Origin: Prevotella lacticifex
Lineage (GTDB): Bacteria > Bacteroidota > Bacteroidia > Bacteroidales > Bacteroidaceae
Assembly: GCF_019973375.1 (NCBI RefSeq)
Contig: NZ_BPTV01000001.1
Coordinates: forward strand, 372,001-436,000
Direction of reading: 5' to 3'
DNA length: 64,000 nt
The notes below the pieces were generated by a model that saw only the letters and a program-made list of their open reading frames with translations, made no database searches and had not been told where the DNA came from. Each line of letters starts with the position of its first letter. The stretch's first letter is position 1. The position numbers and the translations under genes are program-made. Positions 3,795 to 56,549 of this stretch are shown one piece after another.

Positions 3795-3857
3795 TACTTA
3801 ACTGTTGCCGCGGTTGCATCAACGGTTTCGTTGCGCGAACAGCGACCTTCGGTTCCT

Positions 3858-3975
3858 ATTGTTTTCCCTAAAAGAAAATCAGTAACCTAAGAATTGTCTT
3901 AAGTTGCTGATTTTCAGAGTGAACCAGCTAGGGCTTGAATCTAGGTCCACAAATTATGAATCATCAAGACCAGCA
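3858..3975 (-). repeat. Decayed duplicate of tRNA-Met 3' half plus its terminator
   Basis: About 105 bp here match the segment near 5733-5850 with scattered substitutions: the hairpin ending in GTTGCTGATTTTC, the run AGGGCTTGAA of the T arm and ATTATGA of the anticodon region. The 5' half of the tRNA is missing and the anticodon arm is disrupted, so it cannot be functional. Together with the intact tRNA it brackets the ATPase gene, as attachment-site duplicates would. Confidence 0.7.
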
Positions 3976-4063: not shown

Positions 4064-5401
4064 TTATATCAGTCCTGCCATATAAATAGGTATCAGCAGT
4101 GTGTTGCCATCTTTCCGGAGATCCTTGGTATAGATAAGGTAGCGATTGCTGACCCTTTCGGAGTATTTCTGGCAGAATTCATCAAGCGAAGCATGGGTAG
4201 AGTAACCCGAAGATTTTACCTCTACAGGACATAGCTTGAAGCCCCGGGAAAGTAAGAAATCGATCTCATAAAGATGGTTGTTCTTATCAAGCCATGTATA
4301 ATAGAATAGCTTGTTTCCTGAAGATGCTATAGCCTGTGCTACTGCATTTTCATAAACGTAACCGAGATTCGTATCGAGTTTGTCATTTAAGAGCTTCTGA
4401 TAGATGATATTCTCAGTGAAATCTTTATCCCAAAAAGCCAGTGTCACGAAAAGACCTGTATCACAAACGTACATTTTGAACGATGACTTGTTGGTTGAAA
4501 GTTCCATACCCACATTGGGGTCGTCAGCATGGTAGGCTACATTCACAGTCTTGCTGTCTTCTATCATCTCCACTAAGCCCCGACTTGTGTTGCTGCTAAT
4601 CTTACCTATAATCGTTGTCGTTTGAAAGCGAGATGCATTCTTATGAAGTTCCGCAGGTATTGCCTTGAATAAAGCCTTGGCTTTATCTGTCTTGTCCAAC
4701 TTATGGAAATCCTGTTCATAGATGCGGATTATCCCTCTCTTGACCCTGTCAACTGCACTGAGATCGTGGGTCTTGATATATTTGTCAACGGCTTGAGGCA
4801 TGCCTCCCACTAACATATAAAGGCGATAGTCCCGCATCAGCTTTCTGTTCACTGCGTCGCCCAAAGATTGTCGCTTTTCGAGCATCTGTCTGAGCAAAGG
4901 GATGGTTGCAGTGTCTCCAAGCACCCACTTAAACTCCTCGTAGTCCATAGGATACATACTGACCGGTTCTTCTTCACTCGGAATGACGATGTTGTCGACA
5001 TTGCGATGAATGCTGATGAGCGATCCCGTCTCAATATAGTCATACCGTCCATCTTCAACAAGATACTTGATTGCTTGACGGGCCTTGGGGTGCTCTTGTA
5101 CTTCATCGAATATAATCACGGATTGCCGTTCGTAGAGCGATACACCCTCGAGAAGCATGAGGCGGGTGAAGAACATATTAAGATCGGAGATGTCGTTGAA
5201 GAGATTTATCTCTTCTGAAGAAGCTTTCGCAAAGTCAATGATTACGTGACTTCTATACTCCTCTTCTGCGAATGTCCTTGCAATAGTAGATTTACCTACA
5301 CGGCGTGGACCTTCTATCAACAGAGCCGTTCCACCTGCCGAATTTTTCTTCCAAGCAAGCATCTTGTCGTAGATCTTTCTCTTAAAAAGCGTTTCTGCCA
5401 T
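4064..5401 (-). CDS. Orphan AAA ATPase with DUF4143 domain
   Basis: 445 residues from ATG 5401. The N-terminus carries a Walker A (GPRRVGKST, about residue 32) and Walker B (VIIFDEVQ, about 103) of the AAA_14 type; the C-terminal third has the DUF4143 signature with a nuclease-like core (YEIDFLL, CPVEVKSS). Such proteins are abundant, multi-copy and poorly characterised in Bacteroidales; roles in DNA metabolism or defence are guesses. A frame extension to TTG 5425 is rejected because that codon lies inside the -7 box. The gene is alone, flanked by 33-bp tandem repeats upstream and by tRNA-Met duplicates on both sides, which suggests horizontal arrival. Confidence 0.85.
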   Translation of the reverse strand: MAETLFKRKIYDKMLAWKKNSAGGTALLIEGPRRVGKSTIARTFAEEEYRSHVIIDFAKASSEEINLFNDISDLNMFFTRLMLLEGVSLYERQSVIIFDEVQEHPKARQAIKYLVEDGRYDYIETGSLISIHRNVDNIVIPSEEEPVSMYPMDYEEFKWVLGDTATIPLLRQMLEKRQSLGDAVNRKLMRDYRLYMLVGGMPQAVDKYIKTHDLSAVDRVKRGIIRIYEQDFHKLDKTDKAKALFKAIPAELHKNASRFQTTTIIGKISSNTSRGLVEMIEDSKTVNVAYHADDPNVGMELSTNKSSFKMYVCDTGLFVTLAFWDKDFTENIIYQKLLNDKLDTNLGYVYENAVAQAIASSGNKLFYYTWLDKNNHLYEIDFLLSRGFKLCPVEVKSSGYSTHASLDEFCQKYSERVSNRYLIYTKDLRKDGNTLLIPIYMAGLI

Positions 5402-5422
5402 AGCTCGTATTCCTATTTTTGG

Positions 5423-5430
5423 CAAAGTTA
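5423..5430 (-). promoter_or_regulatory. -7 box of the DUF4143 ATPase gene
   Basis: On the minus strand the sequence reads TAACTTTG, matching the Bacteroidota -7 consensus TAnnTTTG, 21 bp before ATG 5401. This decides the start codon. Confidence 0.65.
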
Positions 5431-5603: not shown

Positions 5604-5748
5604 ATGTTCAGTAGAAACAACGTGTTGACTATATGATATTCTCTGATCTGTTTTCCCGTTTGTTTTCCCGCCCGATTTTGGTGTCAAGATAAACGAAATA
5701 TCAGGGACGTATCAAGGAAGATGTGTTTTTCCATTGTTTTCCCTAAAA

Positions 5749-5790
5749 GAAAACCAGCAACCTAAGAATCGTCTTAAGTTGCTGATTTTC
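5749..5790 (-). terminator. Terminator of tRNA-Met
   Basis: A long hairpin with arms AGCAACCTAAGA and TCTTAAGTTGCT around a short loop (one mismatched pair), extended by GAAAA/TTTTC, starts five bases after the tRNA 3' end. On the minus strand it is followed by TTTTCTTTT. Confidence 0.75.
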
Positions 5791-5794
5791 AGTG

Positions 5795-5868
5795 TGGACC
5801 AGATAGGGCTTGAACCTATGACCTCCAGATTATGAGTCTGTTGCTCTAACCAACTGAGCTACAAGTCC
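5795..5868 (-). tRNA. tRNA-Met (anticodon CAT)
   Basis: The minus strand folds as a cloverleaf: acceptor GGACTTG with CTGGTCC (one U-U mismatch), D stem GCTC/GAGC with AGTTGGTTA loop, anticodon loop CTCATAA, T arm ATAGG TTCAAGC CCTAT, discriminator A. Encoded CCA is absent (ACA follows). Elongator methionine is most likely; a CAU tRNA-Ile modified by TilS cannot be excluded. Its 3' half is duplicated near 3.9 kb. Confidence 0.9.
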
Positions 5869-9408: not shown

Positions 9409-9440
9409 GATGAATGTTGTTTGAAGTCGTAAAATAAGGA

Positions 9441-12400
9441 TTAGAACTTAATATTGACATTGAATCCATAGCTCTTGCGCGATGGCAGCGAGCCGTACTC
9501 CAGTCCCATACCTGTGGTGTTGTTATAGTTTGAGTCAGGATCGATATCCGGGATATTCTTCCAGACGATGAACGGGTTTCTCGCCACGAACGACACGCTC
9601 AGCGCCTTTACCCAGTTGTGGAGCCATGCTGTCGGCACCTGATAGGTGAGTGTGAGCTCACGGCACTTGATGTACGAGTTGTCGTAGATGAACATTGACG
9701 GAGCGTTGCGGCATACGCTCATCCAGTAGTCCTCAGGATTTATCTTTATGTCGTTAGGACGGTATGTGCCGTCGCCGTTGTCGATGACTCCCGGCGCAAC
9801 GAATCCTCCTGTTGGTGTCCAGTTGCTCATTCCCTTTGCCACTCCGGCGGCCTCGCGCTGCTCTTCGGAACGATACCACTCGTCGCGGCCTTGCAGTGTG
9901 GCCTTGGCCTTGCCACTCTCGTAGGCAGCGCGCTCCGACATAGAGTAGAGGTCGGCTCCGACCTTGACATCGAAGATGGCGTTGAGTGAGAGGTTCTTAT
10001 AGCTTAGCGTTGTGGTCACACCTCCAGTCCAGTCCCAAGAGGCATTGCCCAATACGTGGTTGCTCTTGTCATACTCCGGCAGACCGGTCGACGGGTCGAT
10101 GAGCACCTGTCCTGCGTCGTTGCGCTTGAAGTCTGGTCCAACGATGGAACCGAAGTTCTCGCCGACCTTTGCGGCAACCTGTACGTCGAGCCATGATGCT
10201 TTCTCAAGTTCGAACATGTCCATACCGTCGACAAGCCTAACGACCTTATTGCTGTTCTTAGAGAAGTTGAAGTTCAGGTCCCATGCGAAATCCTTTGTCT
10301 GCACGGGTCGCGTGTTAAGGGTGATCTCCACACCTCTGTTGTCGATCTCGCCGGCATTGATGAGGCGGTAGTTATAACCTGATGTCCACGAGGTGGCCAT
10401 ACTCATGATCTGGTTCTTACTCTTCTGAGTGTAGTAGGTCACATCAAGGCCGAGGCGATTGTTGAGGAACTTTGTCTCCAGACCGATTTCGAACGAATTT
10501 GTCTTTGTAGGCTTGAGGTCCTTGTTCGGGATGACATTGTTGTTGATGTATCCTATGGTATATCCCGGATAGGTATATTTCGACTTGGTGTATACGAGTC
10601 CGAGCTGATAAGGATCGGTGTCGCTACCTACCTGTGCCCACGACATACGCAGTTTGCCGTAAGGCAGAATACGATTGGCCTTCAGCAACTCTGAGAATAC
10701 GAACGAGCCCGAGAACGACGGGTAGACGTAGACATTGTTGCTTGTCGGCAGCGTAGAACTCTGGTCGCCACGGAGTGTGGCATCGAGGTAGAGGAGGTGA
10801 TTCCATCCGATGCTTGCCGAGCCGAACAACGAGTTTATTCGCTTGCGATAGCTTGAAGGCTCAATGCTCGTCTCGTTGAAACTCATCAGCGTGACCACGT
10901 CGCGTATCTGCATGTCCTGAGCTGTTGTCACCGTTGTCTGGTTGTTAACCCTGTAGATATTGCCACCGGCGGTAGCGTTGAAGTCGAATTTTCCCCATGT
11001 ATTGTTGTATAGAGCGAGGAGCTCGAAATTGTACATTCTGTTGCGGAAGTTGCTTATCTGGAGTCGTCCGGCCTCAAATCCCGGTGTTGTAGGAGCCTTG
11101 AAATCGTTGAAGGTGAACCAGTTGAGGTCGCCGCCGAGAGTTGCCTGCAAGCGGAAGTGCTTGGTGACGTTCCATACGGCCTTGCCTGTCATGCGCAGAA
11201 GGTCCTTGCTTGAGTTGTTGAAATTCTTGTACAGGTCCCAGTATGGGTTGACATTGTATGGGTCCATGCCGTTCCAGTTCGAGTAGTTTCCATCCTCATC
11301 CTGATATGTACGGAGCCATGCCTGGTTGTATGTTGTGGCGAGCGTCATGAGGTTTTTACCTACATTCGACTTACTGTCGCCGAGGGCCGGACGGTTCTTG
11401 ACGTACTCGCGTGTGTAGTTGGCACTGAAGTCGAAGTCGACTTTTCCCATTGTGGTGTTGGCACGCAGGTTGAAGATGTCGCGGCTCATGTGAGTTTTTG
11501 GTACGATATCCTTGTTCCGCATGTCGGTGAAAGTAAATCTCACACCCGTCTTGCCATTATTCATTCCCACAACAGCGGTGTTCGAGGCTGTCAAACCTGT
11601 GCGGAAGAAGTCGGAAACATTGTCGGGAATGATGAGATAAGGTCTCTCCACTCCGTCGAAATATTTCAGCATGTTTGTTCCGTCGGCCTTTGGTCCCCAG
11701 CTCTTATTGGTGTTTGATACGGCATCAATGCTGTATTTTCCGTTGCTGCCCATACCGTACACCTTCTGAGTATTGTTCCATTTTGCGAGCTGAGTATCGA
11801 AGGTCAGCGAACCGTTGTACTCCACGCTCATCTTGTCTTTAGCCGCTTTCTTTGTCGTGATGAGGATTACGCCATGGCTGGCGCGGCTACCATAGAGAGC
11901 CGATGCAGCCGGACCCTTCAGCACCGACATCGACTCGATATCGTCGGGGTTGATGCTTGAGATGCCGTCGCCGAGGTCGAAGCCTCCGTTAGTGCCTGCG
12001 CTGCCAAAGTTGGTGTTGTCCAATGGCACCCCGTCGACGACGTAGAGCGGTTGGTTGTTTCCCGTCATCTCTGTGTTTCCGCGGAGTACCACACGTGTAC
12101 TTCCGCTTGCTCCTCCTGCCGTCTGGCTGACAACGAGTCCGGCTACCTTTCCGGCCAGCGAGTTGATGACGTTGGTTTCCTTGGCTTTCTTCAGCTCGTC
12201 GCCTTTCACCTCGCCGACACCATAGCCCAAAGCCTTACGGTCGCGCTTGATGCCCAAGGCCGTGACGACAACTTCATCAAGCGATTTTTCATCCTCTTTG
12301 AGCACGATGGTCATGCCTTTTCTTGCTTTCAGCACCTGCGACTTATAGCCCACGTAGCTCACCTCAATAAGTGTTCCGGGTCGTACATTCAGTTCGAAGT

Positions 12401-12626
12401 TACCGTCGAGGTCGGTGACGGCACCAGCCCCCTTTGTTCCTTTCACCATGACGCTTGCTCCTATAATGGGCTCGCTGCCATCGGTGACTTTTCCCGTTAC
12501 CGTTTCAGTCTGGTTGGAGACGGCTTGTGCCATCGTCGGGACGGCCAGCCGCGTTGCAATGCCAGGTGTCATAGTCAGGAGGCACATGCAAACGATCCGT
12601 GTAGCGTTTCGGTTTAATTGTTTCAT
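9441..12626 (-). CDS. SusC-like TonB-dependent oligosaccharide transporter
   Basis: 1061 residues. After a signal peptide (to about residue 35) come a carboxypeptidase-D-like domain (VTGKVTDGSEPIIGASVMVKG), a TonB-box-like stretch (LDEVVVTALG, about 116), a plug with the SusC signature (GNTEMTGNNQPLYVVDGVPL) and a 22-strand-type barrel ending in YGFNVNIKF with a terminal aromatic. It imports oligosaccharides across the outer membrane with energy from TonB. It is second in the operon, 17 bp after the GH16 gene, so enzyme and importer are co-transcribed. Confidence 0.95.
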   Translation of the reverse strand: MKQLNRNATRIVCMCLLTMTPGIATRLAVPTMAQAVSNQTETVTGKVTDGSEPIIGASVMVKGTKGAGAVTDLDGNFELNVRPGTLIEVSYVGYKSQVLKARKGMTIVLKEDEKSLDEVVVTALGIKRDRKALGYGVGEVKGDELKKAKETNVINSLAGKVAGLVVSQTAGGASGSTRVVLRGNTEMTGNNQPLYVVDGVPLDNTNFGSAGTNGGFDLGDGISSINPDDIESMSVLKGPAASALYGSRASHGVILITTKKAAKDKMSVEYNGSLTFDTQLAKWNNTQKVYGMGSNGKYSIDAVSNTNKSWGPKADGTNMLKYFDGVERPYLIIPDNVSDFFRTGLTASNTAVVGMNNGKTGVRFTFTDMRNKDIVPKTHMSRDIFNLRANTTMGKVDFDFSANYTREYVKNRPALGDSKSNVGKNLMTLATTYNQAWLRTYQDEDGNYSNWNGMDPYNVNPYWDLYKNFNNSSKDLLRMTGKAVWNVTKHFRLQATLGGDLNWFTFNDFKAPTTPGFEAGRLQISNFRNRMYNFELLALYNNTWGKFDFNATAGGNIYRVNNQTTVTTAQDMQIRDVVTLMSFNETSIEPSSYRKRINSLFGSASIGWNHLLYLDATLRGDQSSTLPTSNNVYVYPSFSGSFVFSELLKANRILPYGKLRMSWAQVGSDTDPYQLGLVYTKSKYTYPGYTIGYINNNVIPNKDLKPTKTNSFEIGLETKFLNNRLGLDVTYYTQKSKNQIMSMATSWTSGYNYRLINAGEIDNRGVEITLNTRPVQTKDFAWDLNFNFSKNSNKVVRLVDGMDMFELEKASWLDVQVAAKVGENFGSIVGPDFKRNDAGQVLIDPSTGLPEYDKSNHVLGNASWDWTGGVTTTLSYKNLSLNAIFDVKVGADLYSMSERAAYESGKAKATLQGRDEWYRSEEQREAAGVAKGMSNWTPTGGFVAPGVIDNGDGTYRPNDIKINPEDYWMSVCRNAPSMFIYDNSYIKCRELTLTYQVPTAWLHNWVKALSVSFVARNPFIVWKNIPDIDPDSNYNNTTGMGLEYGSLPSRKSYGFNVNIKF

Positions 12627-12643
12627 GTCAGATTGATTAAATT

Positions 12644-13657
12644 TTAGATGTTTCTTATGAGTTTCCTGCCTTGTCCGATGACCATACCGCGGTAGTCGGA
12701 GCTGACGCGCTGTCCGGCCATATTATACAAGGCTCCTGTCACGTTCTGTAAGTTATTGGTTGAGTTTTGATCTGATAGTTGCAGGTCGTTGATACCCGTG
12801 GTGACGTTGTTCTGGCCTTTCTTCTGGTAGATACGAACGTAGTCGACATACATTTTCGCCTCACTGCCATCGGCCGGCAGGGCTGTCACGGCGTCGGGTT
12901 GGAAGATGCCGGTGTAGTCGCCACCGACAGCCATATTTAGGATTATGAAGAACGGCTTGTGGAAATAGTCGCCGCTTCCGAATCCTTTTTTTATCATCTT
13001 CGTGAAGTAAGGCTCTGTAGAATTGTCGACATAGAACCTCAGATAGTCGTCGTCCCACACGGCGGTGAAGATGTGATAGTCGCCGGTGAGGTCGTGGTCT
13101 ATGGTCACGTTACCGCCCGAATACTGCTGATGGGAGCCTGCATTTTCGCCCCAGTGTATTGTTCCGGCCACAGTCCTTGATGTTGTTCCGTTGGCTATAG
13201 CCTCCTTCATTCCCATCTCCGAAATGTCGATTTCACCGCATTTCGGCCAGTCCACCTCGTCGAAGTCGTTGCCCATCATCCAGAAAGCGGGCCATAGTCC
13301 GTTGGCCAACTGTGGCAGTTTGATGCGTGCTTCGATCTTTCCGTGCGTGAACGCCACTCTGTGCTTGGTGTTGACACGTCCCGATGTGAATTTCTTCCCG
13401 CCCTGACTCTCCCGGCGCGCAGTCAGAATGAGGTTGCCGTCGGCCACGGTCACATTCTCCGGCCGTGCCGTATAAGCTTGCAACTCGTTGTTGTACGGAG
13501 CGTCGGTAGTCTCCACATTCCAGTTAATGCCGAGGCTGTTGGTGTCGAACTCGTCGCTCCACACCAGTTCATAGTCTTGCGCGCATACCGCATTACAGTA
13601 GAAAAGAAAAGATAACAACGGCGTGAGTCCGCCGCAAAGAAAGTTTTTTATATTCAT
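12644..13657 (-). CDS. GH16 beta-glucanase (laminarinase-like)
   Basis: 337 residues with a signal peptide ending near CAQ (residue 27). The GH16 catalytic motif GEIDISEMG places nucleophile Glu142, Asp144 and acid/base Glu147; ELVWSDEF and GLWPAFWMMG are typical of the endo-beta-1,3(4)-glucanase branch. The last 35 residues (LYNMAGQRV, GRKLIRN) form a C-terminal tag like those on two other secreted proteins here. It is the first gene of the PUL operon, behind a clear -7 box. It likely cuts laminarin or mixed-linkage beta-glucan outside the cell for the SusCD pair. Confidence 0.9.
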   Translation of the reverse strand: MNIKNFLCGGLTPLLSFLFYCNAVCAQDYELVWSDEFDTNSLGINWNVETTDAPYNNELQAYTARPENVTVADGNLILTARRESQGGKKFTSGRVNTKHRVAFTHGKIEARIKLPQLANGLWPAFWMMGNDFDEVDWPKCGEIDISEMGMKEAIANGTTSRTVAGTIHWGENAGSHQQYSGGNVTIDHDLTGDYHIFTAVWDDDYLRFYVDNSTEPYFTKMIKKGFGSGDYFHKPFFIILNMAVGGDYTGIFQPDAVTALPADGSEAKMYVDYVRIYQKKGQNNVTTGINDLQLSDQNSTNNLQNVTGALYNMAGQRVSSDYRGMVIGQGRKLIRNI

Positions 13658-13679
13658 AGTTGTTAGTTAAGTTTGGCTG

Positions 13680-13687
13680 CAAAGGTA
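13680..13687 (-). promoter_or_regulatory. -7 box of the beta-glucan operon
   Basis: TACCTTTG on the minus strand, 23 bp before the GH16 start codon. It would drive all four genes GH16, SusC, SusD and SGBP; the gaps between them are too short for other promoters. Confidence 0.65.
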
Positions 13688-13880
13688 ATGACTGAAAGCT
13701 CTTTAGCGGGTTTGATAGCTGACAATTATGGGTTTGTATTCTGACAAAACAATATCTCAGCAAGCCTTGCCACGACACTCTCGCCGAATATCTTGGATAG
13801 AAAGAGCCTTGTTTCTCCTGGAATTTATGGTTCATTGTTGCCTATTGCTGAAACCAGGCACATGGAAAAAGCCGATGAAA

Positions 13881-13922
13881 ACGCAAAAAGGCTGGCTCCG
13901 TTTGGAGTCCGCCTTTTTGCGT
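13881..13922 (-). terminator. Terminator after the HTCS gene
   Basis: ACGCAAAAAGGC pairs with GCCTTTTTGCGT around an inner TCC/GGA stem; both arms carry A/T runs, so it may work in either direction. It separates the HTCS gene from the operon promoter. Confidence 0.75.
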
Positions 13923-13927
13923 CCTAT

Positions 13928-14051
13928 ACTTGCTTATGGTACCCGCCGGGTACCGCCTTCCAATAGCTTTCTTTTTATTGATATCTTCTCGGTACCGTTT
14001 TTCAATATCATGTCGTTATTCGTGATACTTGCTCGGTACCACTCCAAAATA
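13928..14051 (-). repeat. Degenerate 42-44-bp repeats at the HTCS 3' end
   Basis: On the minus strand GGTACCGAGCAAGTATCA (ending 18 bp from 14040) recurs as GGTACCGAGAAGATATCA from 13996 and, more weakly, as GGTACC...AAGCAAGTAT from 13954. GGTACC positions are 14035, 13991, 13949 and 13938. The first unit contains the last codons and stop of the HTCS gene. The 13938-13954 part also forms a perfect GGTACCC/GGGTACC hairpin. Confidence 0.65.
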
Positions 14052-17000
14052 CTTCTTGAACACGGTACTGAAATATTTCGAGTTGACAAATCCCGTTTTT
14101 ATGGAGACATTGAGCACCGGCTGACCGTCCTTGAGCAGTGCCGCGGCGCGTTCCATCCTTATGCGGAGAATAAAATCGTGGGGCGAGAGACCCGTGAGCA
14201 TCTTCAGCCTGCCGTAGAACAGTGTGCGGCTCATGGCCATTTCGCGGCACAGCCGGTCGATGTTGAACTCCGTGTTACTGAGATTCGTGATGACAATGGT
14301 CGTCGCACGGTCGACAAACTCCTGGTCTGCGGGGTTCAGTGTGATGTCGGCAGGAATGCTGTCGGTGGCGTTCTGGCCATCGTCCACAGCCTTTCCATTG
14401 TCAGCCGACTGTCCTAAGGTGCCTTCTGTAGTGCCTTTGCCACCATTATCATCACTGGTATTCTGGGCCATCATCAGACTCTTCTGCATGTAATACTTGC
14501 TCAGCCGACGCCTGTTAGCCAGTATCGACGCTATCTTCGACTCCAAGAGCTCGGTGTCGAAAGGCTTTGCAATATAGTCGTCGGCACCTTTTTGCAGTCC
14601 TTCAATCATGAAATCCTTTGTTCCTTTGGCCGTCAGGAGGATTACCGGCAGCCATGACGTTTCTTTGTTTTCCTTTATTCGCCTACACAGTTCGTCGCCT
14701 TGGATTCCCGGCATCATAATATCCGAAACCACGATGTCGCATTCGTTCTTGCTCAGATAGTCGAGGGCAGCCTCACCATCGGCCACCGTCACGACGTTGT
14801 AGCTCCTTCCGAAGGCCATTCTCATGTACTGCCGCAGGTCGCTGTTGTCGTCGACGAAGAGTATGGTGTCACCTTTCTTGCTGTCGTCAGCCGCCTCGTG
14901 CCATTGCTGGTGCTCCGGCAGTGGCAGTGAGAGCGTGAAAGTGCTGCCCTTGCCCTCCTCGCTCGTCCACGTCAGCTTACCGCCGAGGCGCGTCGCGAGG
15001 TCGCGGGTGATATTCAGTCCGAGTCCGTAGCCCTTGCCCTTTCCGGCGTTCGTCGCCCTGTAAAAGGCTGTGAAGAGCTTTCCTCGCTCCTCTTTCGGAA
15101 TGCCTTTGCCTGTATCAGCCACATCGAAGTACACGTGTCTTGTGCCCACATGAGCCCTCAGTGTGATGGAACCTCCTGCTGGTGTGTACTTTATGGCATT
15201 CGAAATGAGATTCTCGAATATCAGGTCGAGGATTGTATTATCGGAGATGAACGACAGCTCCTTGTCCGGAACGTCGATGCTTAACGTTATTCCGTTGTCG
15301 GCGGCAGCAAGCATAAACCTGTCGGCCATGGCCCTGACATAATCGGCGGCGTTGAGGAGCTGCGGGTGGAAATCGTGTTTTGCCACACTTGCCTTCTGGA
15401 AATCAAGCAGTTGCGAGATTATCTCCATGAGTCTGTTTCCATTCTTTATGGCCATACCGAGGAACTGTCGGCTGCGCTGGCTGAGCCCTTTGTCGGCTGC
15501 AATGTCTTTCAGCGGCCCCAAGACGAGCGTCAGCGGAGTGCGGATATTGTGTGCCGTGTTGACGAAGAAGTTTATCTTCTCCTGGTCATAGCGCTGCTGC
15601 AGCCGGTTGCGGTAGTAGTGCCATCCCATGTAAACGAGCCATACGACGAACGCCGTGTACACCAACCACGCCCATATAGTGTTCCACCAGGGCTCCGCGA
15701 TGGTTATTTCCAGTGTGGCAGAACCGAGAATTCTCCGGCTGCTCATGCTTGCACTGCGCAGGTGAAGCTTGTAGTTTCCGGGCGGAAGATTGGCATATCT
15801 GACCTCCTGCTGGCGCCTGAACGGACTCCACTGCTTGTCGAATCCCTCGAGCAGACACTGGTATTGGATGTCGTTCTGATAGCGGTAGTTGATGCTTTCG
15901 AAGTGCACAGTGATGGTATTCCGGTCGTGGCTCAATCGTATGTCGCTCTTTTTCAGCATATTATAGAGTTCCTTGTGCCACAGGCTGTCCTCGTCGACAC
16001 CCTCAACGGTTATTCCCGTGATTCGTAACGGGGCCTGATAGACTATACCTACAGTCTGACTCGGATCGATGATTACCGCTCCCTGACTGCTTCCGAACAC
16101 GAGACGACCGTCAGCGGTGGCCGTTGCCGCCAACCGCTTGTATTCGCATTCGAGACCCTTCATGTAATTTATGTTCGTGATAATGCCACCTTTCAAGCAA
16201 GCCAGCCCCCTGTCGGTACCCATCCAGAGGTTGTGGCGGCCGTCGTAGACGAGCGACGATACCACGTTGGATGGCAGTCCGTTGGCCGTCGACATGTTGC
16301 TCACGGTTCCCCTCCGCAAGTCGTAACTGTAGATGCCGCCCCCGTCGGTGCCTATCCATAGCTTTCCGTTGCCGTCGAAACTCATGGCGTTAACGAAGTA
16401 GTTGTAGTCGACACCCTTGAACTCATCGGGGCTGAAGAATCTGCCGACACGTCCTGATACCATGTCGATGCGGTAGCAGCCGTTGCTCGTTCCGACGACC
16501 ACGCAGCTGCCGTCGGGCGATTCGAGCATGCACTGCACCTCCTTTATGGGATATTCCTGCCGTCCGTTGGCCGTGATGCGCGTCAGTGGAGCGTCGAGAC
16601 AGCCTATCCACAGGTCGCCGTTGTGGTCGGTGAGCAGACAGTAGACGTAGTTTGTCTTCAGATTTCCCTTCTCCATGGCATATTCGAGCGTACTGCTGCC
16701 GTCGGCGCCGACACTGAAAACGCCGTCGCCATAAGTTGATGCGAGCATGCGGCCGTGATATTCCGTCAGACTCAGCACTACCTTATTATATAGTGCGTGC
16801 GTCCATCCCCGTCCGCTGTGTCCGTCGTAGATGCTTACACCGCGGTCGGTAGCGTACCACAACCGGCCCTCATGGTCTTGGACGATGTAGTTGACGCTGT
16901 TGTTGATGAGGCTCTGCCCGTTGAGATATTCGTGCTTGACGAAGGTGAAGGCGTGGCCGAGCGGAACGGCGAGGTCGACGCCTCCGGAATAGCTTGCCAC

Positions 17001-33223: not shown

Positions 33224-33226
33224 GCC

Positions 33227-33412
33227 TCCCGACTGCGACAAATCGATGAAATCGCGGAAAAGAAGCATCTTTGGGCTGCGTCCCTTGGCGCTTCCCCACT
33301 GCGACAAATCGATGAATTCGCGCAAAAGAAGCATCGGTAAGCCACGTATTTTTGGTTTCCCCGACTGCGACAAACCGATGAAATCGCAGAAAATAAGCGT
33401 TATTGAACCAAT
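33227..33412 (+). repeat. Three 66-bp tandem repeats between ruvB and coaD
   Basis: CGATGAAATCG starts at 33244, 33310 (one change) and 33376, exactly 66 bp apart. Around it a core of about 40 bp recurs: CCSACTGCGACAAATCGATG, then AAATCGCGGAAAAGAAGC; the remaining 25 bp differ between units. The related motif with the same 66-bp spacing recurs at 61.0 kb. Confidence 0.85.
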
Positions 33413-33433
33413 TCAGTTCAGAACATCTCAGTT

Positions 33434-33928
33434 ATGAAGAATAATGAAATGACAAATAACGACCAGCACCACAGCACACCGGCACCTGCTGGGCGCTGTG
33501 GCGTTTTCACTGGTACCTTCGATCCGTTCACCGTCGGCCACGACTCGATAGTGCGCCGGGCGCTCCCCCTTTTCGACCGTCTCGTCATCGCCGTAGCCAT
33601 GAGTAAGCTGAAGAATACGGAGGAAGAGATATCCCAGCGTGTCGATGAAATCGAGAAAATCTACAAGGATGAGCCGCGTGTGGAGGTCATAGCCTACAGC
33701 GATCTCACCATCGATATGGCCAAACGCGTCGGTGCCCGGTTCATCGTTCGTGGTGTCCGGTCGGTGAAGGACTATGAGTACGAGCGCGAGCAAGCCGAGT
33801 TCAACCGTAAGTTCGGGGGCCTTGAGACCGTCCTTCTCTTTGCCGAGCCGGGTCTGGAGAGTGTCAGCAGCACCCTTGTCCGTGAGCTCCGCTACTTCGG
33901 CCGCGACATCGACGAGTTCCTGCCGTAG
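33434..33928 (+). CDS. coaD: Phosphopantetheine adenylyltransferase
   Basis: 164 residues with the nucleotidyltransferase motif TGTFDPFTVGH at 26-36 and the later block GLESVSSTLVRE that replaces the usual YxxxSSSxxRE pattern. Conserved RFIVRGVRSVKDYEYE is the family signature. It makes dephospho-CoA from 4'-phosphopantetheine. An N-terminal extension of about 20 polar residues precedes the domain; ATG at codon 6 would shorten it only slightly, so true translation could begin later. The gene lies after the 66-bp repeats. Confidence 0.93.
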   Translation: MKNNEMTNNDQHHSTPAPAGRCGVFTGTFDPFTVGHDSIVRRALPLFDRLVIAVAMSKLKNTEEEISQRVDEIEKIYKDEPRVEVIAYSDLTIDMAKRVGARFIVRGVRSVKDYEYEREQAEFNRKFGGLETVLLFAEPGLESVSSTLVRELRYFGRDIDEFLP

Positions 33929-33964
33929 GCCGCAGGTGGTGCCGCCGGGCCTTACGATAAGTTT

Positions 33965-34150: not shown

Positions 34151-34234
34151 ACTGACCGTAATTCTGAATTGTCTTTACAAAAGAGAAGGAGGAAGATGGA
34201 TTGATTAGCCTGTCAAATGGAGGAGGAAAATTAT

Positions 34235-34475
34235 TCCTATAGCAGCCTATAGGAATTGTAGGGAGCTATAGGAATTGATAGGAGGCTATAGGAATTGATA
34301 GGAGGCGCTATAGGAGTTGATAGGGGGCTATATGAATTGATAGGGCCCTATAGAAATCTATAGCGGCTATAGCATCTATAGGAATTGATAGGGAGCCATA
34401 GGAAATGATAGGCATCAATAGGAATTTATAGGGCTCTATAGACCTCTATAGCGGCTATAGCATCTATGGAAAATT
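34235..34475. repeat. 20-bp tandem array rich in CTATAG
   Basis: About eleven copies of a unit like GGCTATAGGAATTGATAGGA with substitutions and one or two indels. CTATAG/CTATAR palindromes recur in most units, and CGGCTATAGCATCTA appears twice, near 34366 and 34453, so a larger block was duplicated. No frame through it looks coding. Confidence 0.85.
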
Positions 34476-34522
34476 ATGAAGAGCTGCTGCCGCGGGCCGC
34501 AGGGCGGGGGAGCAGAGTGCTC

Positions 34523-34559
34523 CTCAGCCCCATCAGAACGACCTCAGCCAGGCTTTGAA
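34523..34559 (+). repeat. 37-bp direct repeat, left copy, flanking the HNH gene
   Basis: This 37-bp segment (CTCAGCCCCATCAGAACGAC, then CTCAGCCAGGCTTTGAA) is identical to 35422-35458, which is the last eight codons, stop and 10 bp downstream of the esterase gene. The original esterase terminator-like hairpin (GGAGCA/TGCTCC at about 34509-34522) lies beside this left copy. Confidence 0.85.
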
Positions 34560-34675
34560 AAGCCAAATAATTATATTTTATTCGGTTTTTCAGCCCAATC
34601 GGACGGCCACAAGGGCCGCCCCTGCAAGTGGATTATAAGTTATTCCACGAAATAATAAATATTATTGTAGCTGCT

Positions 34676-35299
34676 TTATTTCTGTGTTGGCTCAGTTGTT
34701 TTGCTAAAACATTCTGGAAATATTTCCTCCGGTTGCGGATAATGGATAGGAATAAAACGCCAATTGAACGGAAGTTCCAGTAAGTCCATCTCTTCGGCAT
34801 GCTTGTCCATTAGTCCATTCTCCTTGCTGTATTGGTATATATTCTTCATATAATGTATAAGTATGTTCAATGGTGGCCAATGCTTTTGAACCTTGGAATA
34901 CCATTCGAACAAATCCATGTTACCTTTTGAAGAATTGCATGTCTTGCAGACCATGATTATGTTGTCCATGTCATTGTTGCCCCCTTTATTGCGTGGAAAG
35001 ACATGATCGATGGTCAACTTGCTTGGCGGCATCTCTTTGCCGCAATACCAGCAGAAGTTGTTTTCCTTAATCTTAGCCACGTTCAGTTGCATTAGGTCAT
35101 GGATATTCCATCTCCCTTCTTTGTATGCTTTGTACGCCTTGGCTCGTATCATGTAACACTTCTTGTCGTATTTCGGAGTGTTCGAGCCCAATGCATAGCA
35201 GAGCATTTGCAGGTTTGCGTAAGCATAATACAGCAATTCGCCGAAGTTGTTGTATTTGGCACGTTTGGTGGAACTTTTCTTATTATCAGTCATTTCCAT
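34676..35299 (-). CDS. HNH endonuclease family protein, inserted cassette
   Basis: 207 residues. The HNH domain (about 80-125) is complete: CWYCG and CKTCN zinc cysteine pairs, LTIDHVFPRNKGG with the catalytic His, and NIIMVC. Flanking regions are helical and unrecognised; the N-terminus is Lys-rich. The gene is clearly AT-richer than its neighbours and sits with its leader between two identical 37-bp copies of the neighbouring esterase 3' end. It could be a homing-type or solitary defence nuclease. Two ATGs (codons 1 and 3) are possible starts. Confidence 0.85.
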   Translation of the reverse strand: MEMTDNKKSSTKRAKYNNFGELLYYAYANLQMLCYALGSNTPKYDKKCYMIRAKAYKAYKEGRWNIHDLMQLNVAKIKENNFCWYCGKEMPPSKLTIDHVFPRNKGGNNDMDNIIMVCKTCNSSKGNMDLFEWYSKVQKHWPPLNILIHYMKNIYQYSKENGLMDKHAEEMDLLELPFNWRFIPIHYPQPEEIFPECFSKTTEPTQK

Positions 35300-35421
35300 T
35301 TGTTTTTGGCTTTTTTTACCTCATTTTATCCCCATAGCGGCTGTTTCCATTTCGAATGTAAGGTAATTCCTTAATTTAGAAGTTTAGATTTTTTCATCGC
35401 GCGCATAAAAGGAAATAGTTT

Positions 35422-35458
35422 CTCAGCCCCATCAGAACGACCTCAGCCAGGCTTTGAA
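35422..35458 (+). repeat. 37-bp direct repeat, right copy
   Basis: Identical to 34523-34559; here it is the true 3' end of the esterase gene. The pair brackets an 862-bp insert holding the HNH gene. Confidence 0.85.
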
Positions 35459-36256
35459 GTCGAGCATCATCTCGTCGTGATACTTAAACTTGAGGTTGCT
35501 GCCCCATCCGTGGCCTCCGCTGGGATAGACATGCAGCGATGCGCGGACGTCGTTGCGGTATAGCTCCATGTAGTAGTTCACACCGTTGGCGGGCGGCACG
35601 ACGTTGTCGTCGTCGCTGAGAGCGATGAATGCGCGGGGCGTGACGCGGGTGACATGCATGTCGGAGGAGTAGCGCTTCTGGTATTTCTTGCCGTCGTTAT
35701 CGCCGAGGAAGTTGTGGAAACTGCCCTCGTGGCCGTAGCCTTCCATCATTGTTATGACGGGATAGAAGAGAATCTGGAAGTTCGGTTTGGCATCGCCGGT
35801 GCTCTGTGTGGCTATCGTCGATGCGAGGTGGCCTCCCGCCGAGAATCCCATGATACCGACATTGTTGAGGTCGATGTGCCATCCCTTGGCGTTCATCCGC
35901 ACGAGTTTCATGGCCTGCTCGGCATCGCTGATGGGCACGTCGGGGTTGCCGTGGGGCATACGGTATTTTAGTACGATGGCGGCGATGCCGTTGTTCTGGA
36001 AGAACTCGGCCCAGTCGTAGCCCTCCTTCTTTATGGCGAGGTGGTCGTATCCTCCGCCGGGACAGATGACGACGGCGCGGCCAGTGGCCTCACTCTCCTT
36101 TGGTAGATAGACACGCACCTTGGCTGTGTCCTTCGGATCACCGTTGTCGTAGGTGGGACGGCCATTATACAGAGTGGCATCGAAAGTCTCCTGGGCGCTT
36201 GCTGCAACGGCTGTTGCGAGCATTCCCAGCACAAGAAGTATTTTAAAATGTTTCAT
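35432..36256 (-). CDS. Secreted alpha/beta-hydrolase, carbohydrate esterase-like
   Basis: 274 residues with a signal peptide (MKHFKILLVLGMLATAVAAS). The fold shows the oxyanion block CPGGGYDHLA, the nucleophile elbow GFSAGGHLA (Ser near 147), a late acid in SDDDNVVPP and catalytic His in PSGGHGWG. This is the BD-FAE/acetyl-xylan-esterase-like group found in Bacteroidota glycan degradation. It is divergent from a sialate O-acetylesterase-like gene with separate -7 boxes 43 bp apart, so the two esterases may serve the same substrate. Confidence 0.88.
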   Translation of the reverse strand: MKHFKILLVLGMLATAVAASAQETFDATLYNGRPTYDNGDPKDTAKVRVYLPKESEATGRAVVICPGGGYDHLAIKKEGYDWAEFFQNNGIAAIVLKYRMPHGNPDVPISDAEQAMKLVRMNAKGWHIDLNNVGIMGFSAGGHLASTIATQSTGDAKPNFQILFYPVITMMEGYGHEGSFHNFLGDNDGKKYQKRYSSDMHVTRVTPRAFIALSDDDNVVPPANGVNYYMELYRNDVRASLHVYPSGGHGWGSNLKFKYHDEMMLDFKAWLRSF

Positions 36257-54713: not shown

Positions 54714-54962
54714 ACGGCCACTGCGGGCGATTGGGCCTTGCACCTCATTCGGATAAATTGGCGATACGCTATATTCGACTCTCAGAACCGCTTAGAATAG
54801 ACGGCTGAGACAGACAAAAAGAGATAAAGAAACAATATAAAATAAACGTTCAATACATTAAAAAAGAAACATCGGCCGACCGCGTGAGAATGACGGCGAC
54901 AAAGGAATGACTTCGGAGTGCGCCCCGTCTTTCCATCTCCCGGCTACGATGTCGAAATGCTT

Positions 54963-56438
54963 ATGGCAAATTTAAAATCACTGGCTAAGGACACTGTAAT
55001 ATATGGACTGAGCTCTATCATGGCACGGTTCATAAACTATCTCCTTGTGCCAATCCAGACAGCGAAGTTCAATGCTGCCGGAGGACAATACGGAATCATC
55101 ACGAACGTCTATGCCTATGTGGCGCTCCTGATAATAATCCTTACCTATGGAATGGAGACAACGTTCTTCCGTTTCATGAGCAGGGAGGGTGAGGACCCTA
55201 AGAAAATATACTCCACGACACTGCGTACTGTCGCTACGACGTCGCTGACGTTTGCTCTGTTGGTAATAATATTCAACAAACAGATTGCCGGACTCCTCGG
55301 CTACAGCGACCATCCCGAGTATATTCTCGTCATGTATGTCACCGTAGCCATCGACGCTTTTGCCGCTATCCCCTTCGCTTATCTGCGTTATGCTCACCGC
55401 CCTATAAAGTTTGCGCTGTTGAAGATAATGAATATTGTGTTCAACATTAGTCTTAATGTGCTCTATCTCATTGTCTTCCCGCACTTTAAGATAAATCCTT
55501 TCGGCATATACGATGCCAACTTCACGCTCGATGTGGTGTGGGTGTTCTACATCAATATGTTCTGTTCGGTGGCCACACTGCTGTTGCTCTGGAAGGAGCT
55601 CCGCGGCTTCCGGTTCCCCTTCGATATGGCTGCCTGCAAGCGGATGCTGTCGTATACGTGGCCGCTGCTTATCATGGGACTGGCCGGACAGCTCAATCAG
55701 TGTGCCTCACAGATAATATTCCCCTTCGTCTACGACGGCACTCCCGCTGAGGCCCGCATGCAACTTGGCATCTACGGAGCCTGCATCAAGATAGCCATGA
55801 TTATGGTTATGATCACCCAGGCCTTCCGCTATGCCTACGAGCCCTTTGTCTTCGGTAAGTCGAAAGATAAGGACAATAAGGACACTTACGCCAAGGCAAT
55901 GAAGTATTACGTGGTGTTCACTCTCCTTGCCTTCCTCTGTGTGATGGGCTATATGGACGTGCTGAAATTCATTGTCGGCCGCAGTTACTGGGAGGGACTG
56001 GAGATAGTGCCGATAGTAATGGCTGCCGAGATAATGTTCGGCATATTCTTCAACCTCAGTTTCTGGTACAAACTGACCGACAGGACCATCTGGGGAGCCT
56101 ACTTCTCCGGTATCGGTGCCGTTGTCCTTATACTCATTGACATCATCTTCATCCCTAAGTTCAGCTATTGGGCCTGTGCCTGGGCAGGATTCATCTCCTA
56201 TGCCGTGAGCATGGTGCTCAGCTGGTTCTTCGGACAGAAATATTACCCTATCAACTATCCTATCAAGGAGATAACGTTCTATGTCGTGGTGTCGCTGATC
56301 ATCTTCGGAGCCATCTCGGCCTCCAACGCCTACCTCCCGATATGGGGAGCCTTAGCTGTCAACACGCTGATGGTGGTGGCTTTTGCCGCTTTAATCGTCA
56401 AACGTGACATGCCACAGCTGCTGAAAAGGAGAAAATAA
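54963..56438 (+). CDS. Polysaccharide flippase, MOP superfamily (Wzx-like)
   Basis: 491 residues from ATG 54963 (MANLKSLAKDTVIYGLSS); ATG 54957 is also possible. Fourteen membrane helices are expected, opening with the Polysacc_synt block DTVIYGLSSIMARFINYLLVP, typical of lipopolysaccharide and capsule O-unit flippases. It flips lipid-linked sugars across the inner membrane. No glycosyltransferases are adjacent, so it stands outside a capsule locus. Its 3' end is repeated twice downstream with a 44-bp period. Confidence 0.9.
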   Translation: MANLKSLAKDTVIYGLSSIMARFINYLLVPIQTAKFNAAGGQYGIITNVYAYVALLIIILTYGMETTFFRFMSREGEDPKKIYSTTLRTVATTSLTFALLVIIFNKQIAGLLGYSDHPEYILVMYVTVAIDAFAAIPFAYLRYAHRPIKFALLKIMNIVFNISLNVLYLIVFPHFKINPFGIYDANFTLDVVWVFYINMFCSVATLLLLWKELRGFRFPFDMAACKRMLSYTWPLLIMGLAGQLNQCASQIIFPFVYDGTPAEARMQLGIYGACIKIAMIMVMITQAFRYAYEPFVFGKSKDKDNKDTYAKAMKYYVVFTLLAFLCVMGYMDVLKFIVGRSYWEGLEIVPIVMAAEIMFGIFFNLSFWYKLTDRTIWGAYFSGIGAVVLILIDIIFIPKFSYWACAWAGFISYAVSMVLSWFFGQKYYPINYPIKEITFYVVVSLIIFGAISASNAYLPIWGALAVNTLMVVAFAALIVKRDMPQLLKRRK

Positions 56439-56549
56439 AGGTTCAAGTCCATCAGCCACGGCTGCTGAAAAGGAGAAAATAAAGGTCCGAGTCCTTCAGC
56501 GCTAACTGCTGAAAAGGAGAAGAAAATGGCCTGCGGCTACCTGCCGTGG
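56418..56549 (+). repeat. 44-bp tandem repeats of the flippase 3' end
   Basis: CTGCTGAAAAGGAGAAAATA starts at 56418 and again at 56462; a third, slightly changed copy starts at 56506. The step is exactly 44 bp both times. The first unit holds the last codons (LLKRRK) and stop of the flippase gene. The rest of the gap to 56729 shows nothing recognisable. Confidence 0.85.

What the first reader, a model, noticed from the sequence alone, without database searches (positions are those of the whole stretch)
34523..35458. HNH nuclease gene bracketed by a 37-bp copy of its neighbour's 3' end
An AT-rich insert with the HNH gene is flanked by identical 37-bp repeats. One is the true 3' end of the esterase gene; the other lies next to the terminator-like hairpin that probably once followed that gene. 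Arrival by recombination at a gene 3' end, restoring the reading frame and stop, is the simplest reading. This is how some homing-type or site-specific cassettes insert without harm.
Basis: partly seen in the sequence, partly recalled or inferred. Interest (0 to 1): 0.58.

Follow-up and report, generated by a model that had tools for sequence, protein, structure and literature searches.

The report
Solo HNH gene, duplicated target end
In a Prevotella-like gut bacterium a lone nuclease gene sits behind an esterase gene with an exact 37-letter copy of that gene's tail on its far side, most likely the scar of a recent insertion; close relatives of the nuclease usually stand at the head of interchangeable anti-virus defence genes.

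Summary
Window 34523-34559 and 35422-35458 are identical over 37 bp; the sequence occurs exactly twice in the genome even with 3 mismatches. The right copy is the native 3' end of an esterase gene; 17 orthologues end alike. The 862 bp between hold one HNH gene. Best reading: recent insertion with a long target duplication. The empty site could not be shown.

'Homing-type or site-specific cassette' is not supported. In 25 other close-family loci (10 with cut flanks) and 5 distant ones no comparable duplication was found. In 464 kb of the same contig three other genes (AAA_14/DUF4143 ATPase, DDE transposase, a 340-aa gene) are bracketed by copies of a neighbour's 3' end, 62-467 bp, so the route looks general, not HNH-driven.

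Unexpectedly, in 19 of 26 loci another gene follows the HNH gene within 60 bp, in 16 of them with a restriction/defence- or nuclease-type gene first or second: type ISP, MmeI, GmrSD, McrBC, EcoRI-type methylase. At one chromosomal site in two species the DNA behind the HNH gene is completely exchanged. The window's copy belongs to a solo lineage.

The parts
35422..35458 (-). proximal 37-bp copy: native 3' end of the esterase gene, stop codon and 10 bp beyond
   Evidence: orthologues end alike
34523..34559 (-). distal 37-bp copy, identical, non-coding, beside the hairpin
34560..35421 (.). 862-bp insert between the copies; 61% A+T; no terminal inverted repeats above shuffles
34676..35299 (-). 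HNH nuclease gene, 207 aa, HNH core residues kept, same direction as the esterase
34601..34622 (-). GC-rich hairpin 3' of the HNH gene, inside the insert
   Evidence: fold of 34560-34680, z -3.1, 1 of 200 shuffles as good
35432..36256 (-). intact AxeA1-like esterase gene (BD-FAE), 274 aa, the target gene
   Evidence: NCBIfam score below cut-off
34509..34523 (-). hairpin GGAGCACTCTGCTCC next to the distal copy, no T run
34478..34503 (+). degenerate copy (21 of 26) of the coaD 3' end at 33911-33936; possible older duplication on the other side of the hairpin
   Evidence: suggestive only
33434..33928 (+). coaD, convergent neighbour
   Evidence: PF01467; the gene name is recalled
5729..5838 (-). 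parallel case: 3' part of tRNA-Met (5794-5868, -) and sequence beyond, proximal copy
3853..3962 (-). parallel case: distal copy of the tRNA-Met 3' part, 97 of 111 columns identical
4064..5425 (-). parallel case: AAA_14/DUF4143 ATPase gene between those copies

Best explanation
A solo HNH nuclease gene entered the gap between the convergent genes coaD and esterase by insertion with a long target duplication. The break or crossover lay at the esterase 3' end. A 37-bp target segment ended up on both sides, so the esterase kept its last codons and stop while the displaced old tail stayed beside the hairpin. The insert carries no recognisable recombinase gene, no terminal inverted repeats and no end sequence shared with the other inserts. 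The machinery was therefore probably supplied in trans or by general recombination, for example a circular intermediate or repair synthesis at offset nicks. Shown: the duplication, intact genes, native tail at the esterase, patchy family, similar inserts elsewhere in the genome. Inferred: direction and recency (37 of 37 identical although the distal copy is non-coding) and the enzymology. The protein is probably an active HNH nuclease or nickase of the host-defence sphere, since close relatives head restriction/defence gene sets; its substrate is unknown.
For: Exact 37-bp repeat, two copies in the genome. Esterase tail conserved in 17 of 17 orthologues printed. HNH beside the esterase in 1 of 30 esterase loci examined, the window's own. 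HNH family in 18 of 398 genus genomes and, at a looser limit, 7 of 393 genomes drawn from the order. The insert's DNA similarity to 14 other HNH loci is confined to the reading frame. HNH is the only ORF over 100 aa in the insert. No TIR above shuffles (132 of 300 as good) and no clear shared ends with the other inserts. In 464 kb of the same contig three further genes are flanked by duplicated 3' ends: tRNA-Met, 97 of 111 columns, ATPase; a transposase gene, 55 of 63 columns, DDE transposase; X25-domain gene, 467 bp with 451 matches, 340-aa gene. Precedent: R-M systems inserting with long, variable target duplications and individual component genes appearing mobile (PMC3874152 passages; PMC3031569 passages).
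Against: No empty site seen; no strain of the same species was available. Other loci of the family lack the duplication, though 10 of 25 have cut flanks. A duplication at a gene 3' end is also what integrase elements leave. One of the three parallels is a transposase gene next to another transposase gene, and the tRNA case is a classical integrase target (recalled). Only four events in one genome are seen. Two of 12 end comparisons between inserts are mildly above shuffles (7 and 11 of 300 as good).
Confidence: 0.55

Rival explanations
1. Remnant of an integrase-type element (IME or island): the 37-bp copies are attL and attR at a gene 3' end; the integrase and other genes were deleted and only the HNH cargo is left.
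For: Direct repeats at gene 3' ends that restore the gene are typical att sites (recalled); the same window has a tRNA-Met 3'-part duplication around another gene.
Against: No recombinase-sized ORF besides HNH in the 862 bp; the four duplications differ in length (37, 62, about 110, 467) and share no clear end sequence; the 37-mer matches the other 25 close-family loci no better than about shuffled level (best 24 of 37).
Confidence: 0.22
2. The HNH protein drives its own spread: it nicks the target and its gene is copied in, in the manner of a free-standing homing endonuclease.
For: HNH core residues conserved in the 15 aligned members; solo copies recur in distant families between genes that look like housekeeping genes by eye; the window's sister L102 starts about 20 bp behind a conserved gene's stop.
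Against: Insertion sites differ; no family-wide duplication; a like architecture occurs around genes that encode no HNH protein.
Confidence: 0.12
3. Relic of a defence cassette: an HNH-led restriction/defence gene set inserted here and lost everything but its first gene.
For: Close relatives mostly head such sets; HNH genes there decay, with in-frame core deletions in L107 and L108.
Against: The window copy is sister to another solo copy (L102, 99/98) and the distant relatives are counted solo too; outside the HNH frame the insert has no DNA similarity to 14 other HNH loci.
Confidence: 0.08
4. Chance or assembly artefact.
For: None beyond the genome being in 49 contigs.
Against: 0 expected; the window lies inside a 2.66-Mb contig of a genome listed as 100% complete, 0.44% contaminated.
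Confidence: 0.03

Closest known systems
Insertion of restriction-modification genes with long target duplication (Nobusato 2000, Furuta 2010; neither read, seen only through passages of PMC3874152 and PMC3031569)
   Same: gene without transposase flanked by a long direct repeat of the target; defence-related family; variable duplication length; single component genes may move
   Different: here a solo HNH gene, 37 bp rather than on the order of 100 bp; empty site not shown
Genes flanked by direct repeats of genic target sequence in Arabidopsis (PMC2869330, abstract and outline only)
   Same: single genes bracketed by copies of genic target DNA; a circle-insertion model could fit both
   Different: plant; shown there against an orthologous target site
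IscB/Cas9-type and PtuB-type HNH nucleases
   Same: HNH core: NCBIfam Cas9d 2.1e-15, IscB 2.7e-11 (below cut-offs), PADLOC PtuB 1.5e-7; Foldseek and VIA-align best rows are mostly Cas9 HNH domains and the Gme HNH nickase, all weak (E 5e-3 or worse, Z up to 3.8)
   Different: 207-aa stand-alone protein without RuvC match; no PtuA-like neighbour
Integrase elements at gene or tRNA 3' ends (recalled)
   Same: gene tail duplicated and restored
   Different: no integrase, 862 bp, one gene

Membership tests
Insertion with long target duplication | insert bracketed by a long direct repeat of target sequence | tested here: met
   37 bp exact, right copy native to the esterase
Insertion with long target duplication | no transposase/integrase and no terminal inverted repeats | tested here: met
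   HNH is the only ORF over 100 aa in the insert; TIR score 16, reached by 132 of 300 shuffles
Insertion with long target duplication | single copy of the target at the empty site in a relative | tested here: inconclusive
   no close relative held; coaD and esterase not neighbours elsewhere in the listings
Integrase element (IME/island) | own tyrosine or serine recombinase | tested here: not met
   no ORF over 100 aa in the insert besides HNH
Integrase element (IME/island) | direct repeat (att) at a gene 3' end | tested here: met
Homing endonuclease gene | same insertion site in relatives that carry it | tested here: not met
   in the all-against-all DNA comparison of 26 loci no other locus shares the window's flanks beside the HNH gene; both flanks are shared only by L085 and L089, with partial sharing in some other pairs
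Homing endonuclease gene | protein cuts the empty site | not testable with these tools
   needs biochemistry
Insertion sequence or MITE | terminal inverted repeats and a short target duplication | tested here: not met
   TIR score at shuffled level; duplication 37 bp
HNH nuclease (PF14279/PF01844) | Pfam match above gathering score | tested here: met
   57.6 bits against 27.5 and 52.6 against 21.4
Septu (PtuB) | PtuA ATPase next to PtuB (recalled) | tested here: not met
   neighbours are the esterase and coaD
Cas9/IscB effector | whole-protein score above the family cut-off | tested here: not met
   56.4 of 375 and 43.2 of 175 bits

The most novel reading that the evidence does not exclude
This HNH family is a mobile docking gene for bacterial defence in Prevotella. 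Solo copies are seeded at gene 3' ends by insertion with long target duplication. Once there, the conserved HNH gene serves as the homology arm, perhaps also as the nickase, at which whole restriction/defence gene sets are exchanged. L085 and L089 share both flanks and the HNH gene but show no DNA similarity in between; L088 shares its upstream side with L096 and its downstream side with L090, with breaks at or near the HNH gene borders.
Probability: 0.2. Interest if true: 0.78.

Novelty: new variant of a known kind. Interest (0 to 1): 0.5.

Why it matters
How defence genes without transposase or integrase move is open. This genome offers several apparently inserted genes with duplicated neighbour 3' ends of graded length and identity, and an HNH family that heads many unrelated defence systems with the downstream genes swapped at a fixed site. 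Together they make 'how do defence cassettes change places' testable in strain collections of one genus.

Tried and rejected
Looked for the family elsewhere: viral contigs gave no pattern match (close relatives only); phages and plasmids hold only HNH proteins below 60% identity, none covering 80% of the query; a DNA search of phages gave nothing.

Looked for flanking duplications at other HNH loci. Exact repeats of 14 bp or more between up to 6 kb upstream and all held downstream sequence in 26 loci: window 37; L106 33 at -4673/+1838 (a GC-rich repeat; related palindromes also lie on both sides of that HNH gene, and behind esterases of other genomes; discounted); L093 22; L090 17 and 17; the rest 15 or less. 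Ten of the 25 others have cut flanks: under 2.5 kb downstream in L086, L087, L088, L098, L102, L106, L107 and L064; under 150 bp upstream in L101 and L105. A far-end copy could be missed there. Approximate repeats within 400 bp in 31 loci: window 74 against a shuffled mean of 18; L137 29 (single-test p 0.015), L106 27 (0.01), L093 25 (0.05), the rest above 0.05. The L137 core occurs only at those two places in its genome but is one of 31 tests. The L093 right copy sits directly before a TnpB-like gene (name recalled); the eight other matches to that gene begin at its start, without the 22-mer (upstream read directly in two). Part of the 22-mer may belong to the element itself (compare L108), so it is left open. 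The five distant loci were tested only.

Empty-site searches: L099 flanks in 239 genomes gave a place where a relative (G073) keeps 20 bp of the HNH start and has other genes between the flanks; not an empty site. coaD/esterase adjacency was compared by eye on the listings (101 and 108 of 120 genomes with a match).

Control for 'defence genes behind HNH': 20 genes picked at random from 74 that follow another gene within 60 bp in 400 kb of the own genome. 3 of 20 have any PADLOC match at 1e-5, all partial (IetA/DolB, subtilase, GlgB; best 1e-22). Of nine proteins from HNH loci, chosen by me, 8 match, 4 of them below 1e-100. Not a matched design.

Considered and rejected: HNH as the general cause of the duplication, because the parallels encode no HNH protein. 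A transposase (RAYT) identity of the 340-aa gene rests on a recalled motif; Pfam gave no match. No fold claim is made. L107 and L108 were left out of the tree for their deletions; its bootstrap had not settled and long branches meet at its base.

Full report
What is there. The window is 64 kb of a 2.66-Mb contig of a 4.19-Mb genome. That the host is Prevotella-like is inferred from the titles of most records carrying the closest relatives. Between the convergent genes coaD (33434-33928, +) and a 274-aa esterase (35432-36256, -; BD-FAE, best NCBIfam model AxeA1 but below its cut-off) lies an 862-bp insert whose only ORF over 100 aa is an HNH gene (34676-35299, -). It is bracketed by an exact 37-bp direct repeat that has only these two copies in the genome. 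The right copy is the esterase's own end. The 17 orthologues from other genomes printed end with the same peptide pattern, so that copy is native and the left one is the duplicate. The insert is 61% A+T against 43% for the esterase.

Is it more than chance? Yes. Shuffles give none, it is the longest exact direct repeat in the window, and of 41 window genes tested the esterase has the highest-scoring downstream copy of its own end. The hairpin next to the left copy folds as a 43-nt piece (-19 kcal/mol, z -2.2), but the 100 nt around it are ordinary (z -1.0) and there is no T run. A degenerate copy of the coaD end (21 of 26) lies just beyond that hairpin. If real, the old gap was coaD end - hairpin - esterase end and has been split on both sides of the hairpin. 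Within that gap none of 500 shuffles reached its score, yet among 41 genes it ranks only fourth, so I call it suggestive.

Insertion rather than old neighbour. Among the 30 best esterase loci, from 101 of 120 genus genomes with a match, an HNH match in the flanks (1.5 kb where the contig allows) is present only in the window's own. The close HNH family is found in 18 of 398 genus genomes at E 1e-30 and in 7 of 393 genomes drawn from the order at E 1e-25, five of those seven weaker than 1e-60. DNA similarity of the window to 14 other HNH loci stops at the reading frame. An orthologous empty site could not be found: the best esterase relative is 75% identical, and on the listings, compared by eye, coaD lies nowhere else beside the esterase (closest 2.3 kb, in G007). 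Direction and recency are therefore inferred, from 37 of 37 identity in a copy that is non-coding on the distal side.

Does the family always do this? No. In 26 loci of the close family (L085-L108, L064 and the window) only the window has such a repeat; ten of the other 25 have cut flanks. The next best are L106 33 bp (GC-rich, 4.7 kb upstream, discounted), L093 22 bp and L090 two of 17 bp. Allowing mismatches within 400 bp in 31 loci, only the window stands far above shuffles (74 against 18); L137, a solo copy in a distant family, has a 13-bp exact core on both sides that occurs nowhere else in its genome, one of 31 tests. So the duplication records this event; it was not found to be a trait of the family.

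A general route in this genome? I scanned the window plus the next 400 kb of the same contig for direct repeats 300-6000 bp apart. Sixteen rows passed the score. Ten rows lie inside three pairs of equal-length neighbouring genes (taken as tandem paralogues) and one row repeats another; these were set aside. Five distinct repeats remain. Four bracket a gene, and in all four a copy contains a neighbour's 3' end. They are: the tRNA-Met 3' part plus following sequence (3853-3962 and 5729-5838, 97 of 111 columns) around an AAA_14/DUF4143 ATPase, with a 101-aa ORF beside it; the HNH case; a DDE transposase behind another transposase gene (62 bp, 55 of 63 columns); and a 340-aa gene without Pfam match, on the other strand, behind an X25-domain gene (467 bp, 451 matches). 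The fifth (64 bp) has no gene between. Terminal inverted repeats are at shuffled level in all four (48 to 272 of 300 shuffles as good). Of 12 end comparisons between inserts, two are mildly above shuffles (7 and 11 of 300) and the rest are not. Duplications of graded length, unrelated cargo and no clear common ends fit insertion with long and variable target duplication, described for restriction-modification genes (passages of PMC3874152, and PMC3031569, with a sentence in PMC3154945; the primary paper PMC2853133 is not held). A similar pattern with a circle model is reported for single genes in Arabidopsis (abstract of PMC2869330). Against this: a transposase and a tRNA are also ordinary targets or parts of other elements, and four events are few.

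What the HNH family does elsewhere. One search measured the distance to the next same-strand ORF. In 19 of the 26 close-family loci a gene starts within 60 bp (from -13 to +52); L099 also scores there, but by an ORF that lies opposite its DUF4923 neighbour, and is counted solo. The next gene is: type ISP methylase (L085; L086, L087 and L091 by DNA similarity), MmeI-type IIG enzyme (L089), GmrSD_N (L090; L088 and L107 by DNA similarity), DUF2971 followed by EcoRI-type methylase (L092; in L108 the DUF2971 was tested and the methylase is by similarity), PADLOC PDC-M30A (L093; the name TcmP is recalled), DEDDh exonuclease (L097, L103), AAA_5 followed by an McrBC component (L101), HNH_5 protein (L098). 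L096 has an unannotated gene, then an EcoRI-methylase-like one by DNA similarity. L094 and L095 have genes without matches (L094 has an Mrr endonuclease directly upstream). L106 sits before a CbiJ/CbiD gene. Of the remaining seven, L100 has Cas12a 198 bp downstream with Cas2 further on, L064 has a gene without Pfam match at 211 bp, and L099, L102, L104, L105 and the window are solo. So 17 of 26 (16 of the 19, plus L100) have a restriction/defence- or nuclease-type gene as first or second downstream gene, six of them judged by DNA similarity at least in part and three (L097, L098, L103) on a nuclease domain alone or nearly so. As a rough control, 3 of 20 random followers in the own genome have any PADLOC match, all partial, against 8 of 9 HNH-locus proteins that I chose.

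Exchange at the HNH gene. L085 and L089 share the left flank (96.5% over 4.7 kb), the HNH gene (93%, similarity ending at its stop) and the right flank (94 and 99.7%), but no DNA similarity was found between HNH and right flank. L088 and L096 share sequence to the HNH stop and then differ, while L088 and L090 share from shortly inside the HNH start onward and differ before it (L088 ends 0.3 kb downstream); L087 joins L085 and L086 from 17 bp before the match start. In L107 and L108 the HNH core is deleted in frame while the downstream set stays. This suggests recombination at the HNH gene; whether its activity is involved is unknown.

Where the window's copy belongs. In a 29-row tree (L107 and L108 left out) the window is sister to L102 (99/98), also solo. 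L102 starts about 20 bp behind a conserved metallophosphoesterase-domain gene whose orthologue in G095 (85%) diverges at the stop. The distant relatives L135-L139 and L106 are counted solo as well (L106 and L135 do have a gene close behind, not of recognised defence type). The label needs 4 changes against 9.1 when shuffled. The bootstrap had not settled and long branches make the deep part unsure. So the window copy is more likely a member of a solo lineage than a stripped defence set.

Protein. The model (pLDDT 79.5, pTM 0.74) has an N-terminal helical part and an HNH core; structural matches are weak and led by Cas9 HNH domains and the Gme HNH nickase; by sequence 4h9d leads with E 1.2e-8. 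Many core residues are invariant in the 15 aligned members. A DNA nickase or nuclease is the natural inference; its substrate is unknown.

Verdict. The insertion reading is supported short of an empty site. The homing/site-specific reading is not supported. The mechanism resembles long-target-duplication insertion. The bolder reading, an HNH docking gene for exchangeable defence sets, is not excluded. Literature searches aimed at the HNH-leader pattern showed nothing that describes it in the titles and abstract starts listed, but most papers outside the open library cannot be searched here.

Noticed in passing
window 3853-3962 and 5729-5838: Direct repeat, 97 of 111 columns: the 3' part of tRNA-Met plus following hairpin-like sequence, bracketing an AAA_14/DUF4143 ATPase gene (4064-5425, -) without a recognised recombinase.
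   Followed up: partly
L194 12478-15519 (G000:C1 668478-671519): 467-bp duplication (451 matches) of the 3' end of an X25-domain gene brackets a 340-aa gene on the other strand; a HUH-transposase-like motif is recalled, Pfam has no match.
   Followed up: partly
window 34233-34480: Intergenic array of CTATAGGAATTGATAGG-type units and palindromes between coaD and the hairpin; nature unknown, perhaps an older insert behind coaD.
   Followed up: no
window 33224-33421: Three diverged 66-bp tandem copies (GACTGCGACAAATCGATGAAATCGC...) between ruvB and coaD.
   Followed up: no
window 56417-56500: The 3' end of the gene 54918-56438 is repeated in tandem at 44-bp spacing.
   Followed up: no
L100 about 9115-14900: HNH family member 198 bp upstream of a Cas12a gene, with Cas2 further on.
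   Followed up: partly
L107 and L108: HNH genes with in-frame deletions of the catalytic core; the downstream genes remain.
   Followed up: partly
L085 and L089: Same chromosomal site in two genomes with entirely different DNA behind a conserved HTH and HNH pair.
   Followed up: partly
L099 and L152 (G073): The relative keeps only the first 20 bp of the HNH frame at the same left flank and has a DUF262-like gene pair (by sequence look only) near the right flank.
   Followed up: partly
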